Shown here: piece after piece, positions 17,273 to 62,611 of the stretch | Position numbering within the stretch: the stretch's first letter is position 1 | Layout: every line of letters begins with the position of its first letter | Source of the DNA: Rhea pennata | Lineage: Eukaryota > Chordata > Aves > Rheiformes > Rheidae | DNA length: 64,000 bases | Direction: 5' to 3' | Assembly (NCBI RefSeq): GCF_028389875.1 | Contig: NC_084671.1 | Coordinates: forward strand, 28,515,083-28,579,082 | Position numbers and translations under genes: made by a program | The notes under the pieces: generated by a model | The model's input: the letters and a program-made list of their open reading frames with translations, nothing else | Told to the model about the DNA's origin: nothing | Database searches by the model: none

Positions 17273-17400
17273 CTGCGCCCGGCTCGGCGGGTCGCTGCGC
17301 TCAGCCGCGAGCGGGGGGCGCCGGCATGGGGCCGCGCCGAGCCGAGCCGAGCCGAGCCGAGCCGAGCCGAACCGCGGTGCCCGGCGGCTGCGGGCTGGCA
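17273..17400 (-). other. KIF1A: probable noncoding first exon of KIF1A (5' limit unknown)
   Basis: Read on the minus strand, the sequence ends GAGCCGGGCGCAG followed by GTAAGGGCG, a near-perfect splice donor, in the core of the CpG island. The acceptor of the first coding exon lies 10.2 kb away in the right orientation. The right-hand (5') limit given here is arbitrary, because the transcription start cannot be read from sequence. Confidence 0.45.
17336..17370. repeat. (GCCGA)7 tandem repeat
   Basis: Seven perfect copies of a GC-rich pentamer sit beside the likely KIF1A noncoding exon. Read from the KIF1A side the unit is TCGGC, so it may be part of the 5' UTR. Confidence 0.95.
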
Positions 17401-20800: not shown

Positions 20801-23800
20801 ACCCTGAGGCGGGAGCACTTAAGCACATACCAAAGTCTTGTACCTAAATGGTTCTGCAACATATGCCAGCGCACTCTGCTGAACAGGTAAAGCTAGGCGC
20901 AGTGACATATGCTGTGTAGACCTCATCTCTTAACCAAGGGGAAATCTAGCTGGTGAATCTGGAAGGAAAACAGAACAGAGCTTCTTCTCCACAGCTTACT
21001 GTACCTGCCCCAGTGCAAGGGGCAGAGGCAGTCTTCAAGGCCAGCAGAGCTAGTTGGCTATAGGCAGATCATTTCTAGACACACTTTGGTTTGAGCTGAA
21101 GCAGAGTTTAGTAGTTCCCACTACGGCAAAGCTTGCACTTTTTGGTTCATCTTCATTAATCTCAGCAGAGAAGGGCAATAGTTTGCAGGGAAAGTACTGG
21201 CTGAAACTGCATTTGCAGAGGATAATAAACAGGATCATGTGTTTGCATAGGAAGGGCAATGTGCCAGCAGCAATCACAGTGTCACGGCTGATCCTGCCCC
21301 AGATGCCACCTTTGGCATCAGCAGCCCCAGGCATCACCCACTGCCCTGCAGGCCCAGAGGTGGGGCCAGCTGGGTTGCTCTTACTGGGACACACGGACAC
21401 GTAAGGGGCTCCCTGCCCTCTGCCATGGATCAAAATGCCAGCCTCAGGCATGTGCCAACGAGCCACACTGCCACAGGGAGCCCTGGCCAAGCAGTGTGAC
21501 TGCTTATGGCTGCACTCACAAGTCAGGGCGACAAGCTCCTTAAGCGTCATTGTAGGAGCCACTCATGGCAGGGGGACAGCCAGCCCCAGCAGGGACCAAG
21601 GCCGAGGCTGCTTGATGACATCAGGTGACAAGTCACCTCTCCTGCACCAAACCAGCAAGCTTTTGAGGACTTTGCACCCAACAAGCATCATCTCCAGCCC
21701 TGAGTCTTTGACTGACACTTCTCCAGGGAAGCACCTGCAGAACAGGAAGGGATGGGCAGAGGTTCATGGAGAGAAGTAGCCAGTTGCTGCAAAAAGCAGA
21801 TCTCTTGTCATCTTTTTACAGGGCGGCAGGCAGGTCTGCACTGCTCTGGGTCACTCCTGCCCACTGCCGACTGAGCAGGGACAATGCTGGTCCCAGAGGA
21901 GCTCAGATCAGGAAGCTGGAAGGTGGCCAGTGTGCGAGTGCCTGGCTCTGAGCCACAGTCCGTTCATCAACCGGAAAGCAAGAGCTTTGCCAACTCCTCA
22001 TGGCCAAGGAGGACCCACTGGGACCCACTCTCAGACCTGCCAAGAGCCTGAAACAGGCAGCTGTTAGGGTCATAGCATTTGCATTTTGGAGTTGGTATCT
22101 GACCTGTGGTTCTCATGTGGGGTAGGAACACTTAGGGCTTCAGCAGAGCCATAGTCCTTCGCCCAGCCCTGGGCTGCATAGAGATCAGAATCACTCATGT
22201 GGAAATCTGACATAGCTGAAAGAGCTGCCTTAGCTGTTGACAGGCATGGCATGGTGGACAAGATGCACACGTGATGGACCATGAGCACACACAATGGACA
22301 ACAGGCACACACACTGGGTGATGGACACACGTGATGGATCACAGGCACGGCATGATGAGCAACAAGCATAGCATGACAGAGGACAGGCACACACAGTGGA
22401 GGACAGACACAACATGATGAAGGATGTTTACAGTGTAATGGATGATGGACACAATGTGATAGACACCAGGCAGGCATGATGGATGACAGACACAGCATGA
22501 CAGATAATAAGCACACGGGGCAGAGGATGGGCATGTTGCGATAGACCACGGGCACACATGACAGATAACAGGCACATCATGACAGACGATAAGCATGGTT
22601 TGATGGACCATAGGCACACTTGACAAGTGTGGCACGTTGAACAACAGGCATGCTTGTCATGCAACATCCCAGCACACTGCACATACTGTAGGGACACATC
22701 ATGAGGCCAGTGAGCTGGGCCGAGCCTGCAGGAGCAGAGTTTGCTCCAGGAGGGACTGCAGCTGCTGTCTGATCCCATGGTTCCGCTCTTGGACAAATCA
22801 TCCCAACACCCAATCTGCTCTGAGTGGATGGCACTCGGCCAGGCATCCTTCTGCAAGGCTGGTGCTTGAGCATGGATCAATGATTGAAAGACCTGTCTTA
22901 CAGTGGGTTAATACAGAATATGATTCTGTTTCTGGTTGGATATAGTGGTCACACTCATGTCCACATCAGTGAGCAGAGGTTCATGACCTGGGAGGGCTAC
23001 AGCTCTGCAATGCTGGAGACGTCCAGACAGTGGTGGCTGTGCCGAGTCCAGTCCTGGCGTGCACTTCCCTGGGCATGGAGGCAGCAGGAACCTTGTGAGC
23101 AGGATCTCTGCATCCCCTCACAGCAGGGATCCCAACAAGAAGGTGTTGGGAGCCCGTCAACCATCTTGTGCTGCCCTCTGAGTATGCCTCCCCATCACAG
23201 TGGGACGTCCCCTCCATGGGCACCTGGTGCTCAGATCGCACTGGAGGACCCCAATACCTTCGCTCCCTCTTCCTCTTACAGGTGAAGAAAAATGAGATTG
23301 CCATCCAAGTAAGGTACAAGAGCAGCTCAGCTTCCCCTGGCTCATGGAGAAAGTGAGAGGCTCATGCCATGCCTTGCTGGGACGTGGTTCGGGGAGGCAT
23401 GACCTGCCCTCAGCCCTGGGGTGGACAACATGCTCGATGCACACGTTATGTGTGGCAGCATGTCGACAACAAGGTGAACTGCAGCCCAGGACATTCATCA
23501 ACCTGGGGCTGGAGAAAGCCACCTTGACCCATGCTGAGCGGTGGCTTATGCCACGGCTGTCACTAGGGCTAGCACAGCTGTACTGCCAAGGTGGTTGGAA
23601 AATGCTGTCTGCAGTAGCCAGCTCTGTGGGCGTTTCCCAGAGTGTCTGCCAGCGGTGCCGCTGGCATGTGGGGCAGATACACGGAGTCAGTGGGGGTAGA
23701 TGTGGCCCCCGAGGGACCGTGGTGGGAAGGAATCCCCTGCAATGAGAGGGCCGAGGTGTCAAGGCCAGTGTTAGTGGCACATTAACCAGGCGAGGAGGCA

Positions 23801-28828: not shown

Positions 28829-29178
28829 ATGACATAGCACCATGTGGCTTCCCTGTTGGTTGCTTGTGCTCTCCGAGTTTTGAGCGGAAAGATGCAGTCG
28901 AAAGAAGCACCACAAGGACACAGCCTTGCCCAGCACAGGGGAAAGCACAGCTTGAGAGCCATCTACAGGAAGGAGGCAGAGAGCTGGGTTGGTCTCTCCA
29001 GTTGTTAGAGAGAAAAGTTTCTTGCCTGTGTCCTTTCCTCTTCTTCAATGTTTTAAGGTCAGCTGTAGCCTGATTTCCCTTCCCCCTGCAGGGAGCTCAG
29101 GCTGCTGGCAGGGAAGGGCCTATGTAGTAAGGAAGGCAAATGGGGAGACACTCGGATGGGCTGGCAGTGAGACCCCAC
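28829..29178. other. convergent gap between AGXT and MAB21L4, MAB21L4 3' UTR
   Basis: Only 350 bp separate the AGXT poly(A) signal from the MAB21L4 stop codon. No AATAAA or ATTAAA is visible on the minus strand here, so the MAB21L4 transcript may use a variant signal or run into AGXT 3' sequence. Confidence 0.5.
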
Positions 29179-29271
29179 TCAGCTCTGCACTGGCACTTCT
29201 CTCCGGGCCTTGGACAGGAGCTGGGACATAGCCAAGTGGCGTGCATGGTCCTGGATCTGGTACATCTGGAA
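29179..29271 (-). CDS. MAB21L4: MAB21L4 exon 5: residues 414-443 and stop
   Basis: Encodes FQMYQIQDHARHLAM then SQLLSKARREVPVQS and stop. It matches human FQVFNIQDKDR. Acceptor CCGCTCAG. Confidence 0.92.
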   Translation of the reverse strand, partial: FQMYQIQDHARHLAMSQLLSKARREVPVQS

Positions 29272-32200
29272 CTGAGCGGACACATGCAGGGAGTGAGTGG
29301 AGAGGGTTTCCCGCTCTGCTCGAGCCCAGCACACCCTGAGCAAGCCCCTCCGCAGCCTCCCACAGCTGCCAAACACCACGGTGGGCTGGGCAGCACAAGC
29401 CAGTGAGGGTCAAAGGCAGGGGAGCTCTTGGAAGTAAATTCCAGCACACCATAAACTGCCCAGCCAAGCAGGTTTCGGGCAGTGCCATGCACTGCCTCAC
29501 GTTGGCAAGACCAGCCAAGCAAAGCCCCTGGAGTCTCTGGCGTCCCCTTAGTTACCTGGCTGAGTAGGATGTCAAAATAGGCTGTGTCCCAGTAGGTCTT
29601 GTCCTTGGCTGGGAGCTGCAGGAGGGCTCTGATGCCAGGATCTGCCTGCAGGCCACTGGTGTGCACAGGGAGGCTAAAGTGGAAGTGGAGGAAGCGATGG
29701 GGGTCCCGGGCAAAGCCCTCCACCATACAGTATAGTGAGCTGAGGTCCAGAGGCTCTCCTTGGAACAGGTTTTCCTCCGGGTGCAGGAAGTGGGGCAAGC
29801 GCTGGGTGGCCAAGCAGCAGAGGAGGATCACCAAAAGCCTGTAGACCGAGCCCTCGAGGTCCTGCCAGTCCTCCGGTGAAGGAAACAGCTCTGTGCTCCA
29901 CAGTAGCACCATCTGTGGAGAGTGAGAGCGGCATGGAGAAGCTGTGGGGTGTGGGCAGGGTTGGGCTGCAATGCCAAGGGGACTTAGGCACTCCCTGCAA
30001 AGATTGCGCCTTCAGATCCCTTGAATCACCGTGCAGCCATCCCCACATGCATGGAGCTGAGCTCTCAACGCAGATACCACATCTGGCTTTGCTCAGCATC
30101 CCAGTGACACAACAGGACTGTACAGTCTCTCGGAGCTGTTGCTTCAGGTGCCTGCAGACTCAGGCTGATGTCCCTGAATCTCCCTACTCTGTTCACCTTC
30201 TGATGCGGATATCACCTTCATCCCCCAAAGAGCCTCTGATTTGGTGCTGGGACAGACAGGACTCTACATCTCAGCTATGCAGCAACTCTGAAATGATGTG
30301 CACAAGCTTTCCACACAGGAGAAACATTAAAGCACAGAGACTGCTCACAGTTTCCCTGTCACATCAGCCATCCACAGTGTATGTGAACCCCTTGCGACTA
30401 CCACATCAGCTACCTCAGCACTGTGCTGAGAAGTGGCCCAGCAACTGATACTTTCTGGTGCCAGATTGTAATGGGAAACACATCCGGGGACAAAGGCCAG
30501 CATGGCTTGGAACAAGAATGTCCCTGCTAGCCCAAGGAGGTCTGTTTGACCAGCCAGGTTTGTCGGAAGCAGTTGCCTCCTCCATGCTGTGATCCCAGGG
30601 CCATAGTATATCCACATGACAACAGGGATATCTTAGTGCTGCTGCCTTTGCTGCCTTTACTTTCCTGCTCAGTTCAAGAGAACTTTCAAGGCTCTGGCCA
30701 AGTAGAAAAATTAGGGTGAAACTCGGCACAGGGTGGTAGGGCAGCCTGCATTTGATTAGAAATCAAAAGAAGATGCTTTTTGAAGAAAAAAGGCATTCTG
30801 TGTTTTTTCTTAATTGCAAAAAACCACAATCTAAAATAAAACCCAAGGGATCTGGGTTACTTTCAGCTGAAGCCATTCTCTTGACAGAAGACAGCTTTGC
30901 CTGCTTCTCCATCTCCACCCCAGTGAGACACCACAAGATGGAGCACACCTCGATCGTACTCCGTCCCTGGCCCAGAGTGCTGTGAACAGGTTCAGCAAGG
31001 AGACAGGGTTTGGTCGGAGAAGGAAATGCAGCCCTCAGCCATGCACAGGCACCTCCCGGCATGCTAGGACAGAGGATACCATGTGGCACGGTAGGCACAG
31101 CAATGCCATCCCCAGCACTGTCCTTGCAGACACGAACTAGGCCAGGGAGCTCTTAACACTCCAGGTCTTTTGCTCTGGAGATTACTGGCTCAGTCCCCTA
31201 AATGCCTGCTGTCTCCAGAGAGGGTAGCATGCACTGGAGAAGGATCAGAGCTCTCTGATCAGGGCCAGCAATGTGCATTCTTTCCGGACACAGCCACGGG
31301 CTGATATGTTCCAATATACATAAATTACTCTGGCTTTTGTTTGGGCTCCTCTTTCAGCAGCAGCTTGGCCTCATGAGGTCCAAGCCTTGCCCCCGGCCAG
31401 GGAGCAGCTCTGGCTCTGCCCATGCCTTGTGTTCAGCTAGGAGAGCTGCACTCCTGCAAACTCTGGAGGAAGAACCTACCTTCAGGTGGTTGAACGTGAG
31501 GCCGCATTTCTTGCCCTCCTCCCTCCAGTCCTCGGAGTTGACCTGGTCAAGCAGGCGAAGGCTGTCTAGACGAGGACCCTTCAGAGTGCCCACTGCATGG
31601 AGCAGCTTCAGGACTGGAATGTGAGTGGAGGATCTGTGAAGGGAGAGCAGCTTGGTGAGGGCTGTGCAGGGCTACCCAGACTAGAGACCTGGATTTTCCC
31701 AGCCAGGAGACAAGGAAAGGGTATCTACAGTGACCTGGCACACTTGGAGATGGAGCGCTGGAGGGGCTAGGGAAAGGCCCAGGAGTAGGCAGGAAGGCAG
31801 AAGGCTGCTTTTTGGCACCGATGAACGGAGCACCCCACCTGGATGCCCTGGGAGTTGAGATACCCCGGAGCAGAGAACAAGTGTTGAGATATTGGACTGG
31901 CTGCAATCAAACAGCTGGCATGGCCAGACCCACAGCAGCTCTGGGGCTGGAGGTTTGAAGCAGGAGCCTCCCCAGGGCTGGTTCCCCCCTGCCCAGAAAC
32001 ACAGGAGCTGAGGGCAGCTTGCCCCCAGCAGCCATCTGGCCCCAGGAGCCGCACGTGGATTTGCTGCAGCGTGGGGCTAAACTCTTTTCAGCTGCCCCAT
32101 GCGACAGGGCAAGAGGCAATGGGCAGAAGCTGAACCACAGGAAGTTCCACCTGAACATGAGGAGGAATGTCTTCCCTGTGAGAGGGACAGAGCACTGGAG

Positions 32201-35100
32201 CAGGTTGCCCAGAGAGGTTGTGGAGTCTCCTTCTCTGGAGATACTCAAAGCCCGCGTGGATGCAACCCTGTCTAACATGCTCTAGGTGGCCGTGCTTGAG
32301 CAGGGAGGTTGGACTAGATGATCTCCAGAGGTCCCTCCCAACCTTCCTGATTCTGGTCTCTGTCCCAAACCTGCTGGGAGAACGGATTGTGGCCTTGTGC
32401 CACACAAGGTGTAGGGATAGGCTCACTGTGGGCACCAAAGGACCCAAGACTCCAGCCAGCCCCAGCAGCTCAGCACCACCAAGCCCCACAGACTCTCCCA
32501 GCCACCTGGTGTGGTCCCAACCGCATAGCATCCCCAATCCACCTCCTGCAACCACTCCTGTCAAGAAAGGAGAGTGGAAAGGAGGACCCAGAAGATCTGC
32601 AGCTAACAAAGGTGCTGCCGAGCAGTTCCTGAATTCCCAGAAGGGACTGGGGATGAGGGGAAGCACGCCTGTGTTTCCTTATACACCAGCCCTGTGTGTT
32701 TTGGGGAGTGCTGCAGGCTGTCTCAGGGGTGAAGCCGGCCTCGCAAGTTTGGGCTGGACACCCAGCTCGTGCCCAAAATAATTCAGGCTGGTGCAGGCGG
32801 ATGCTCAGCCCCTCCTTGGGGCTGGGTAACTGTGCTCACAGGTGAGGCGTGTGTCACCCCAGCCCTTTTCCCTCCCACAGCCCACACTGGAACGCACCTC
32901 TACCTGCTGCTGTGAGATGCCTGGACTTGCTTGCAAAGTCCTAGCAAGAGAGCTACCACCGTCTGCATTGCTCCTTCTGAGATTCAGCTGCTGGAAGCCA
33001 CCTGCGGGCCTCCCCAGACATCTAGACACCCTGTGGGGCATGTCCTGGCTGGAGAGGGTTCGGCATGTGAGCCCAGCTTTTTGGGAATGTATCACATACC
33101 CCCCGCAGTCAGCACAGCCCCCAACAGGGGCTTGGGGATGCTCAGAGCCAGGAGTGAGCCAAGAGTTCATCAGCCTTCCCAGGCCACCAGGCAGGAAAAT
33201 CATCTCAGTGCTAGGCTGAGAGCATCAAACCTACTCTGGAAAGAGGGGTATGCTAGGGAGGGACTCCACAAGAAAAGGTTTCTCCATATACTCCCCATGC
33301 TGGGAGATTTCCCAGGACCCTGGAAATAGCTCCCAAATTCATGGAGGGCCTGGCCTTACTCTGGGCTGCACCTGAGCTTCAGTGTTTGAGCTCAGCCAAA
33401 GGTCTCTGCATGTTTCTGGTACGGAGCCCTCTTTTATTGCCCTCTTTCCTGGTGTTGCCTGAAATTTGGCTCATGTTTTTCCACTGTCTCCCCCAAAACA
33501 GGGCAGTAGTTTTGATCGTAATTTTAATGGTGAGATAAATTCACTTCAGCTGGCCACAGCAAACATCTCCCTCTACCTTCCCACCGCCTTCTGCATGCTC
33601 CCGGCAGCGCTGCCAGCCAGGGGCCCCCAGAACAGATGGGACATAGGCACGGTCACTGTGTGCTGCGCGTGTGCCCCTGCAGAGCACGGTGTGCCACTCA
33701 CCTCCAGCAATAAGGAGAGGCAGGGACGAAGTGGGCCTCTTCTGTGGCCTTCTGGAGGCTGCCTTCAGGGAAACCCTTGTCACTCGGCTGCCTGCCAAGC
33801 TCAAGCGGCTCCTGCTGCCTCCTCACCACAGGGATGATGTTGAAGCGGACGGTTTTCCACCCACCACGGATCAGCAGGGACAGCTCCATAGCGTCTTCCT
33901 TTAAATGTTCAGCATTGAGGTCACCTAGACATGGAGAGTTCAGCTACATCAGAGGAGAAGGCCAGGAGGTTACCACAGCCGGTCCTGCAGGCTGAACCAG
34001 GTGCATGCCGCAGCACCCACGGGCTCGTCCCACCCGACTCGAGTCACTCCTTGCTGGTGCTGTGGTTTGGCTGCAGTTCCCAAGAGAAGGCTGTTGATCC
34101 AAGCCCTGTGTGGCCCTCGCGTGAGAAGGATGAGGGTCGGCACAGCAGGAACCCAGGCAAGCACCAGTCAGCAGAACAGTTCGGTGGCAGAACAGCACAG
34201 AGAAAGACAACATGATCCAAGAAAAACTGATCAGAGAAAGGTCTCAGGCTATGGGGGCAGAGGAAAACCATGAAGGGTTATGGCTCAAAGGAGAGAGGTT
34301 GATGGACTGGCTAGTGGTGCTGCGTTTCTGAGACCCTCTGGTCCTCTAATATCATCTTCTCTTCATCAGAGCAAAGACTTACTTGAAAGAGTATTCAGAG
34401 GTGGAAAATGTGTAACGATACCACTACAATCCCCCCGGGCATTCCTGGTGGGGACCTTCCCCACCCCCCACATCCTTCCCAGGCACAGTTCTGCCCAGGA
34501 GCTTGGGGTAACGTGCAGGGACCCCTGCAGAGCCCGGGCCCCTCCATCCCAGCCGGATGGCTCCTGGACAGGGAAGACCCCGCTAGCTTACGCACCTGGC
34601 TGAAAGAGGAAATGGCGCTGGCAGTGCACGATGGCCGAAACAAGGAGCTCTTTCAGGCGGCAGAGGACTTTACTCGGTACCAGACACCCGGTGCCACCTG
34701 CCTGTTCCATCATGCCTAAGGCATCTGCACTGGTCCAGTCCTTCAAACTGGTCTCCTGAGAGGGCACTTCGAGGTAACAGGTGCCAGACGCGGGCTGGTG
34801 CCCAGGAGTCACGCTCTCGGCTGGGCTGTCTCCAGGCCGGCATGCCCGTGCCCGCAGGGTGTTGCCGTCAATCCGCAGGGGCACCTCCAGGGTGACAGCA
34901 TCCTCAGAAGCACGGAGGGCGAACTCCAAGGCTTCCAGGTTCCTGCAGTAATCCACGAGGAAGCGGGGGTCCCGCTCGTGGACGTGCTCCAGCAGGGTCA
35001 GCAGGATGTCCTCGGCCTGCTGGAAACTCTCCACCCGCTGCCCCTCGCGGGACAGGGTGACGCCGAGGTAGCTGTGCCAGCGGGACACGCGCGCTGCCAT
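29179..35100 (-). CDS. MAB21L4: MAB21L4 (C2orf54), Mab-21-like protein, 5 exons, 443 aa
   Basis: CDS exons in coding order: 35100-34596, 33924-33702, 31633-31480, 29912-29556, 29271-29179. Lengths 505, 223, 154, 357 and 93 sum to 444 codons with the stop. The start MAARVSRWHSYLG, the middle LRSS/SGWKTVRF-like segment (here IRGGWKTVRFNIIPVVRR) and the end YWDTAYFDILLSQ match the human protein, which is of similar length (about 447). The family has a Mab21 nucleotidyltransferase-like fold, but MAB21L4 is divergent and no catalytic acid triad is obvious, so enzyme activity should not be assumed. Human work links the gene to epidermal differentiation. The start has G at -3 and +4. It is head-to-head with CROCC2 (604 bp between the two ATGs) and tail-to-tail with AGXT. 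Confidence 0.94.
29556..29912 (-). CDS. MAB21L4: MAB21L4 exon 4: residues 295-413
   Basis: Encodes MVLLWSTELFPSPEDWQDL, GSVYRLLVILLCCLATQRL, LPHFLHPEENLFQG and YWDTAYFDILLSQ. The hydrophobic VYRLLVILLCCLAT helix is a hallmark of the family C-terminal domain. Donor GTAACT. Confidence 0.95.
29913..31479 (-). other. MAB21L4: MAB21L4 intron 3
   Basis: No exon-like segment with matching splice sites was seen. An AT-rich patch at about 30745-30850 stands out from the GC-rich surroundings. Confidence 0.75.
31480..31633 (-). CDS. MAB21L4: MAB21L4 exon 3: residues 243-294
   Basis: Encodes SSTHIPVLKLLHAVGTLKG, RLDSLRLLDQVNSEDWREE and CGLTFNHLK. Acceptor TTCACAG, donor GTAGGT. Confidence 0.93.
31634..33701 (-). 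other. MAB21L4: MAB21L4 intron 2, contains a CR1 relic
   Basis: A noncoding stretch of 2.1 kb. Its only recognised element is the plus-strand CR1 3' end at 32056-32362, antisense to MAB21L4. Confidence 0.75.
32056..32362 (+). mobile_element. CR1 LINE, truncated 3' end
   Basis: The sequence carries the characteristic end of CR1 ORF2 (reading RKFHLNMRRN, HWSRLPREVVESPSLEILKA, LSNML and stop), followed by the 3' UTR hallmark TTGGACTAGATGATCTCCAG and AGGTCCCTCCCAACC. The terminal ATTCTGTGA-type repeat is decayed to GATTCTGGTCTC. It is a 5'-truncated dead copy, as most CR1 copies are in bird genomes. Confidence 0.9.
33702..33924 (-). CDS. MAB21L4: MAB21L4 exon 2: residues 169-243
   Basis: Encodes GDLNAEHLKEDAMELSLLI, GGWKTVRFNIIPVVRRQ and FPEGSLQK, ending PYCWR. 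Acceptor TCTAG, donor GTGAGT. Confidence 0.94.
33925..34595 (-). other. MAB21L4: MAB21L4 intron 1
   Basis: 670 bp without a supported exon. Nothing notable was seen. Confidence 0.8.
34596..35100 (-). CDS. MAB21L4: MAB21L4 exon 1: residues 1-169
   Basis: Starts MAARVSRWHSYLGVTLSREG. Contains HERDPRFLVDYCRNLEALEF and ends CQRHFLFQPG before donor GTGCGT. It is the longest exon and holds about 38% of the protein. Confidence 0.95.
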
Positions 35101-35495
35101 GGCCGGGGCCCGCAAGCTCCTGCTCCAAGCGGGAGTGGAAATATGTGGGCAGGGCGGGGAGCAGGCGCCGGGCGGGCGGAGGGAAGCTGCAGGGAGCGTT
35201 CGCCCGCGCCCCGGCGCTGCTGGAGGAGCGCCAGGGCGAGCCGAGGGGCACGTCGCCCCAGCCCCCAAGTGCCGGCATCCCCCCGTACGCACGGCCCCAT
35301 CCTCCCCCCGTCCCGAATGGGGGTCTCAGGCCTGCTGCCCCGCTCCCTCCCGCTTCTCCTTCCTGCTCTGCCGCGGGGAAGGGGCGTGGGGCCGGGCCCG
35401 GCACGGTGGGAGGCCCCAGGGGCTGCCCGCTCCCACGCGTGGGCTCGGCCGCGGCCCGGCGGGGGGCGCTGGCGGCCCCGTGTGTCGGCCCCGCC

Positions 35496-35651
35496 GTCCC
35501 CATGGCAACGCCGCGGCCTCGCCGTCGCCATGGCAACGCGGCGCCCCCCACCCCGCGGTCGCCCCGGCAACGCGGCTCTCCCCCCCCCCCCTCCCCTCCG
35601 CCGCGGTCGCCCCGGCAACGCGGCGGCGTCCCCCGCGGTCGCCCCGGCAAC
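35496..35651 (+). promoter_or_regulatory. CROCC2: array of five RFX X-box-like sites upstream of CROCC2
   Basis: Sites: 35496-35509 GTCCCCATGGCAAC (one mismatch), 35524-35537 GTCGCCATGGCAAC, 35558-35571, 35606-35619 and 35638-35651 (each GTCGCCCCGGCAAC). The last four fit GTNRCC(N2)RGYAAC exactly. Spacings are 28, 34, 48 and 32 bp. Each core is embedded in a repeated CCGCGG...GCGG context, so the array probably grew by tandem duplication. RFX factors activate ciliary genes through X-boxes close to the start, and the downstream gene is a ciliary rootlet protein. Confidence 0.8.
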
Positions 35652-35669
35652 GCGGCGGCCCCGGCAGCA

Positions 35670-35701
35670 GCGGCGCGGCGCGGCGCGGCGCGGCGCGGCG
35701 G
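35670..35701. repeat. (GCGGC)n / GCGGCGCGGC simple repeat
   Basis: Four to five near-perfect GGCGC units lie directly before the CROCC2 start codon, forming a GC-only stretch in the presumed 5' UTR. Confidence 0.75.
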
Positions 35702-35704
35702 GCG

Positions 35705-62611
<26,907 letters not shown>

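What the first reader, a model, noticed from the sequence alone, without database searches (positions are those of the whole stretch)
35496..35651. Tandem array of five RFX X-boxes just upstream of the ciliary gene CROCC2
Seen: four exact fits to GTNRCC(N2)RGYAAC and one with a single mismatch, all in the same orientation, within 156 bp and 54-209 bp before the CROCC2 ATG. Known: RFX factors drive ciliary genes through one or two X-boxes near the start. Five in tandem, embedded in a repeated CCGCGG...GCGG unit, is unusual and suggests that promoter strength grew by tandem duplication of the site. The same array sits between two divergent genes and could also act on MAB21L4.
Basis: partly seen in the sequence, partly recalled or inferred. 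Interest (0 to 1): 0.75.

Follow-up and report, generated by a model that had tools for sequence, protein, structure and literature searches.

The report
Repeated RFX sites before CROCC2
Just before a gene for a ciliary rootlet protein, the DNA carries five repeats of the site that the ciliary switch protein RFX is expected to bind; the array is real and probably helps switch the gene on, but similar arrays sit elsewhere in the same genome, several of them near genes not known as ciliary.

Summary
In detail: five same-direction X-boxes at 35496-35651, four exact and one with one mismatch, ending 53 bp before a CROCC-family ATG at 35705. None of 20,000 local shuffles held two exact sites. The copies are tandem duplicates in a CpG island. 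In 5 of 5 the right half-site is GGCAAC and the left half departs from GTTGCC. One of 12 half-site columns varies, against 2 of 2 spacer and 13 of 22 flanking columns, a test biased by how copies were found. A coding repeat and an RNA structure are not supported. Best reading: a homotypic RFX-site minisatellite in the CROCC2 promoter. It is not unique: the same 1.27-Gb genome holds 66 such tandem pairs (reversed control 6) in 35 clusters. Of eight other arrays fetched, five have a recognisable gene near (TUSC2/RASSF1-like, beta-crystallin, AP1S1-like, SC5D-like, L1CAM-like), none known to me as ciliary. NRF1-type sites also pair often. Dosage-driven promoter gain is plausible but unshown; no orthologue or occupancy data were available. 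A known kind of element, with a recurrence worth testing.

The parts
35496..35509 (+). X-box copy 1, GTCCCCATGGCAAC (one mismatch to GTNRCCNNRGYAAC; out-of-frame ATG inside)
35524..35537 (+). X-box copy 2, GTCGCCATGGCAAC (exact; out-of-frame ATG inside)
35558..35571 (+). X-box copy 3, GTCGCCCCGGCAAC (exact; CC spacer, no ATG)
35606..35619 (+). X-box copy 4, GTCGCCCCGGCAAC (exact)
35638..35651 (+). X-box copy 5, GTCGCCCCGGCAAC (exact)
35486..35659 (+). minisatellite carrying the five sites; spacings 28, 34, 48, 32 bp
35001..36000 (.). CpG island over the divergent promoter (GC 0.74-0.86, CpG observed/expected 0.75-1.16 in 250-bp bins)
35705..35758 (+). first coding exon of the CROCC-family gene ([18 protein letters not shown]), joined in reading to 36207-36357; splice sites judged by eye
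   Evidence: Rootletin profile positions 1-26 matched in 38266-38568, E 2e-7, 31.6 bits, below Pfam's cut-off of 36; the exon-2 peptide alone matched no Pfam family
34902..35100 (-). start of the MAB21L4-like gene, ATG at 35100 on the - strand
   Evidence: name recalled; no Pfam match for this exon; Mab-21_C domain in 29097-30011 -

Best explanation
A short GC-rich minisatellite whose conserved core is an RFX binding site (X-box) lies in the CpG-island promoter of a CROCC2 orthologue. Shown: five copies related by tandem duplication, every copy keeping the right half-site GGCAAC and a weaker left half-site, at promoter distance. Inferred: RFX1/2/3-type factors bind as dimers; several sites in about one nucleosome length raise the chance that at least one is occupied and keep the promoter open; FOXJ1, for which I found no site here, would be brought in through RFX. 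The lack of helical phasing argues for simple avidity rather than a rigid cooperative complex. Copy number is likely to be mutable and may tune output.
For: Sites and chance level. One of 12 half-site columns variable against 15 of 24 others, Fisher p 0.0035; mean pairwise difference 0.033 in half-sites, 0.60 in the spacer, 0.31 in flanks. No 26-base stretch scoring 18 or more to the unit beside the five copies; the two other such stretches in the window are far off. Spacings 28, 34, 48, 32 and out-of-frame ATGs speak against a coding repeat. RNA folding weaker than 200 of 200 shuffles. With simple patterns, no FOX, CCAAT, NRF1, ETS, E2F, MYB, CREB or TATA match in 35102-35704. Literature, passages only: a robust window of -500 to +500 around the start site for human X-boxes (PMC5838959); fly rootletin CG6129 treated as an RFX target (PMC2375033); HEATR2 has two X-boxes, the second often with a degenerate 5' half (PMC4168999); Rfx2 stabilises Foxj1 at promoters poor in forkhead motifs (PMC5245798); mouse Crocc2 named with ciliary genes in an oviduct study (PMC11864756).
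Against: No binding, expression or start-site data. [quoted passage not shown] The copies were recognised by the same pattern whose columns were then tested, so the conservation test is biased in its favour. Spacer position 8 is followed by G, so CpG decay could explain part of the spacer's variability. In 5 of 5 copies the left half deviates from GTTGCC. Similar arrays occur near genes not known as ciliary. NRF1-type sites also form many close pairs and one long array, so repetition of CpG-island motifs is general. PMC8321518 on cichlid crocc2 does not mention RFX or promoter (0 occurrences each).
Confidence: 0.6

Rival explanations
1. Neutral GC-rich promoter minisatellite: one functional X-box was present and slippage copied it; the extra copies are passengers without effect on expression.
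For: Copies 4-5 are near-identical over a 32-bp period; GC-rich flanks and runs such as C12 at 35580-35591; (GCGGC)n next to the ATG; arrays near unrelated genes.
Against: Half-sites change less than spacer and flanks, with the bias noted; no broken copy found beside the array; X-boxes lie in tandem pairs more often than the reversed control word (66 of 3437 matches against 6 of 1672; by clusters 35 against at most 6, p 0.012).
Confidence: 0.27
2. Repressor or methylation-tuned array: RFX1 (MDBP) binds the GTCGCC halves, which carry a CpG at positions 3-4 in four of five copies, more strongly when methylated, holding the gene off outside ciliated cells.
For: CpG at the position where the consensus has TpG in 4 of 5 copies; RFX1 is MDBP, and methyl-C can stand in for T in its sites (PMC3185043, passages).
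Against: CpG observed/expected is 1.16 in 35501-35750, as expected of an island unmethylated in the germ line; the copies are duplicates, so the CpG is not four independent events.
Confidence: 0.06
3. The array acts mainly on MAB21L4 or on both divergent genes.
For: The core is near-palindromic and lies 395 bp from the MAB21L4-like ATG.
Against: Much nearer to the CROCC-family ATG; MAB21L4 described in keratinocyte differentiation (PMC11802505, passages); GGGCGG boxes nearer MAB21L4 at 35152, 35170 and 35174 offer it another activator.
Confidence: 0.05

Closest known systems
X-box promoter motif of RFX-regulated ciliary genes (HEATR2, Dync2li1, fly rootletin)
   Same: Half-site pattern, short spacer, closeness to the gene start; a well-kept 3' half with a weaker 5' half, as described for the second HEATR2 X-box
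   Different: The HEATR2 passages describe two X-boxes; here five in tandem. [quoted passage not shown]
Promoter VNTRs that may carry transcription-factor sites (eVNTRs such as ZNF232)
   Same: Tandem unit close to a gene start; [quoted passage not shown]
   Different: Copy-number variation has not been examined here; only one assembly is held.
Homotypic clusters of CpG-island motifs, e.g. NRF1-type sites in this genome (motif recalled)
   Same: 122 close pairs against 0 for the reversed pattern; one 24-bp array at C24:640183-640362
   Different: On contigs C1-C58, the part for which NRF1 places were listed, 4 of 27 X-box clusters hold four or more pairs against 1 of 64 NRF1 clusters (p 0.026), but clusters with two or more pairs do not differ (5 of 27 against 7 of 64, p 0.33). 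Post hoc.

Membership tests
X-box (RFX site) | two half-sites GTNRCC / RGYAAC with a short spacer | tested here: met
   4 of 5 exact, 1 of 5 with one mismatch
X-box (RFX site) | bound by an RFX protein | not testable with these tools
   no occupancy data
RFX-regulated ciliary gene promoter | X-box near the start of a gene for a ciliary protein | tested here: met
   53-209 bp before the ATG of a gene with a partial Rootletin match below Pfam's cut-off; CROCC2 rather than CROCC rests on the MAB21L4-like neighbour and recalled synteny
RFX-regulated ciliary gene promoter | X-box conserved in orthologues | not testable with these tools
   G000 'has no relatives here'
homotypic site cluster made by tandem repetition | repeated unit including the site, flanks alignable | tested here: met
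expression-controlling promoter VNTR | copy number varies and tracks expression | not testable with these tools
   one assembly
coding tandem repeat | unit lengths in multiples of three, in frame | tested here: not met
   spacings 28, 34, 48, 32 bp (one of four a multiple of three); ATGs at 35502 and 35530 out of frame with 35705

The most novel reading that the evidence does not exclude
In this genome the X-box is a recurrent seed of promoter minisatellites: tandem arrays of three to eight X-boxes arose separately at several GC-rich places, with unrelated linkers and different left-half variants but a kept right half GGCAAC. Either RFX-site dosage is a widely used, rapidly mutable tuning knob, or the RFX-bound palindrome itself promotes tandem duplication in the germ line (RFX2 is a spermiogenesis factor by the titles listed). 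The CROCC2 array is the ciliary member of that set.
Probability: 0.2. Interest if true: 0.7.

Novelty: new member of a known kind. Interest (0 to 1): 0.42.

Why it matters
What multiple X-boxes do is called unclear in the passages seen (PMC4168999). A natural five-site array in front of one ciliary gene, plus sister arrays elsewhere in the genome, gives a direct test of whether RFX-site number sets expression level, and whether RFX sites are themselves prone to tandem duplication.

Tried and rejected
Coding repeat: rejected, spacings and frames. RNA structure of a 5' UTR: not supported, folds worse than 200 of 200 shuffles. Helical phasing: none, offsets mod 10.5 are 0, 7, 9.5, 5, 5.5. Methylation-tuned reading: kept as a minor rival. 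A decayed sixth copy after copy 5: considered by eye; no 26-base window of 18 or more matches beside the five. Pfam on other open frames of the window: 0 of 10 pieces matched at E 0.01 and 0 of 10, so synteny was not extended. MAB21L4 first exon and CROCC exon 2: no Pfam match; best PDB match for the former E 0.63, not meaningful. In some searches (protein 1) and 49 the MAB21L4 exon was read in a wrong frame; one search is the right one, and the 394-bp gap printed should read 395. The YY1 pattern held a literal N in one alternative and is not used. The promoter of the CROCC paralogue and a search with the array's own DNA in the same genome were asked and never answered, so both are untested.

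Genome-wide: L042 (C94) shows a 21-base unit without indels and may be a coding or satellite repeat; I count it as doubtful. Of the 10 other clusters with two or more pairs I fetched 6-kb stretches for 8 (C101 and the second C94 cluster left out), and scanned 3-kb flanks of 12 single-pair clusters for genes, of which two gave a Pfam-supported gene, an IRF-domain gene (L008) and an adaptin (L032). The remaining 14 of 35 clusters were not examined. A first NRF1 comparison (6 of 35 against 1 of 64 clusters, p 0.0074; 0.018 without C94) is superseded: the NRF1 list stopped at C58 while X-box clusters on higher contigs had been counted.

Paper searches on tandem or multiple X-boxes: 'tandem X-box' 0 papers; 'RFX' + 'multiple X-box' + 'ciliary' 1 paper; RFX + X-box + rootletin 7 papers; the 'homotypic cluster' query 70 papers, 25 listed, none of the listed with that phrase; RFX + homotypic + reporter 3 papers, titles and abstract starts only; the X-boxes/VNTR query 544 papers, 20 listed, general VNTR papers; CROCC2 38 papers, 25 listed. 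All within the open-licence library only. Also looked at by word search, with little use: PMC11344851, PMC10393296, PMC3795713, PMC11623930.

Full report
What is there. The stretch 35496-35651 holds five X-box-like 14-mers on the + strand, four exact to GTNRCCNNRGYAAC and one (35496) with one mismatch. The CROCC-family ATG is at 35705 and the array ends 53 bp before it. The divergent MAB21L4-like ATG is at 35100 on the other strand, 395 bp from the array. The gene names rest on a partial Rootletin profile match in 38266-38568 (E 2e-7, 31.6 bits, below Pfam's cut-off of 36), a CEP250 coiled-coil match in 55254-55823, and a Mab-21_C match on the other strand. Most other CROCC-side frames scanned gave nothing or generic coiled-coil matches. 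CROCC2 rather than CROCC is an inference from the neighbour and recalled synteny. The 68 residues read from two exons joined by eye resemble the rootletin N-terminus as I recall it, but the exon-2 peptide matched no Pfam family.

More than chance. Four exact sites lie in 35340-35706; 16 of 20,000 dinucleotide shuffles gave one and none two or more. Allowing one mismatch over the whole window, 9 of 100 shuffles reach the observed 11 rows, so the loose count alone would not be remarkable. The sites are tandem duplicates, so the surprise is one or two events followed by copying.

Anatomy. In 5 of 5 copies the right half-site is GGCAAC; in 5 of 5 the left half departs from GTTGCC at position 3, and copy 1 also at position 4. 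Copies 1-2 have the spacer AT, copies 3-5 CC. Among 36 ungapped columns (10 left, 14 core, 12 right), one of 12 half-site columns varies, two of two spacer columns and 13 of 22 flank columns (Fisher p 0.0035 for half-sites against the rest). This is what selection on RFX contacts would leave, but the copies were recognised by that pattern, so the test leans towards the result, and spacer position 8 is CpG-prone. Copies 1 and 2 contain ATGs (35502, 35530) out of frame with 35705; copies 3-5, nearest the gene, lack them. One may guess that the start site lies below copy 2; this is untested. With simple patterns no FOX, CCAAT, NRF1, ETS, E2F, MYB, CREB or TATA match was found in 35102-35704, only three GGGCGG boxes nearer MAB21L4 (motif patterns recalled).

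Not unique in its genome. Same-direction pairs GGCAACN{10,40}GTNRCCNNRGYAAC number 66 against 6. Per single match that is 1.9% against 0.36%; counted as clusters, 35 against at most 6 (p 0.012). Eleven clusters have two or more pairs, the window's among them. Of the other 10, eight were fetched: X-box counts within the 6-kb stretches were 7, 6, 8, 5, 10, 3, 3 and 3. In the seven of these that I aligned (not L042), half-sites differ less than the spacer and less than the flanks in each, though in L038 flanks are nearly as conserved (0.024 against 0.057). The search pattern itself fixes most half-site letters, and GGCAAC in the first site of each pair, so this is expected in part. The arrays use different left halves (GTCGCC, GTTACC, GTAACC, GTTGCC and others) and different linkers, so they probably arose separately.

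Neighbours. L039 lies between TUSC2 (Pfam E 7.7e-19) and an RA-domain gene that reads as RASSF1; L040 lies about 2 kb from a beta/gamma-crystallin exon; L041 about 2.3 kb from a clathrin-adaptor small-chain exon that reads as AP1S1. L044 is about 1.2 kb before an SC5D-like exon and L045 lies among exons of an L1CAM-like gene; these two names are by eye, with no Pfam match for the first and weak Ig matches for the second. L038, L042 and L043 gave no identified gene. So, with the window, six of nine arrays have a recognisable neighbour and one of the six, the window's own, is at a gene I know as ciliary. ZMYND10, a ciliary gene, lies near RASSF1 in human as I recall; this was not checked here. 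Being near a gene is not shown to mean acting on it.

A motif control. NRF1-type pairs (pattern recalled) number 122 against 0 for the reversed pattern, so close repetition of CpG-island motifs is common here. The tool listed only part of them, up to contig C58; merged over strands by hand these are 78 places in 64 clusters, 7 with two or more pairs and 1 with four or more. On the same contigs X-boxes give 27 clusters, 5 and 4: p 0.33 for two or more, 0.026 for four or more. This comparison was chosen after seeing the data. It hints at longer arrays for X-boxes, no more.

How it most likely works. RFX dimers bind one or more of the five sites; several sites raise occupancy over the promoter and keep it open; RFX recruits FOXJ1, as proposed for multiciliated-cell promoters (PMC5245798, passages). 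The sites, their duplication and their place are shown. Binding, activation and dosage are inferred. The spacing is not phased on the helix, so independent binding is more likely than a rigid assembly. Against it stands the fly result that an X-box before the ATG does not by itself predict RFX control (PMC2375033, passages).

Verdict. The class of tandem X-box arrays is the more interesting lead.

Noticed in passing
L038 2785-3092 (G000:C2:934284-934591): Seven X-boxes on a 49-bp period, a young-looking minisatellite in a CpG-rich stretch about 0.93 Mb from the contig start, with retroelement-like frames nearby.
   Followed up: partly
L039 2859-3046: Six X-boxes with identical half-sites (GTTACC..GGCAAC) and linkers of changing length, between TUSC2 and a RASSF1-like gene.
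   Followed up: partly
L041 2770-2908: Three of the units join an X-box to a GC box (GGGGCGGGGC); about 2.3 kb from an AP1S1-like exon.
   Followed up: partly
G000:C24:640183-640362: NRF1-like palindromes in an array with a 24-bp period (seven chained pairs).
   Followed up: no
L042 2404-3057: 21-base repeats without indels containing ten X-box matches; may be a coding or satellite repeat.
   Followed up: no
35580-35591 and 35670-35704: A run of 12 C inside the array and (GCGGC)n directly before the ATG; both likely to be length-variable.
   Followed up: no
17331-17374: GCCGA pentamer array (8.8 copies).
   Followed up: no
22477-22625: 62-bp minisatellite, 2.4 copies.
   Followed up: no
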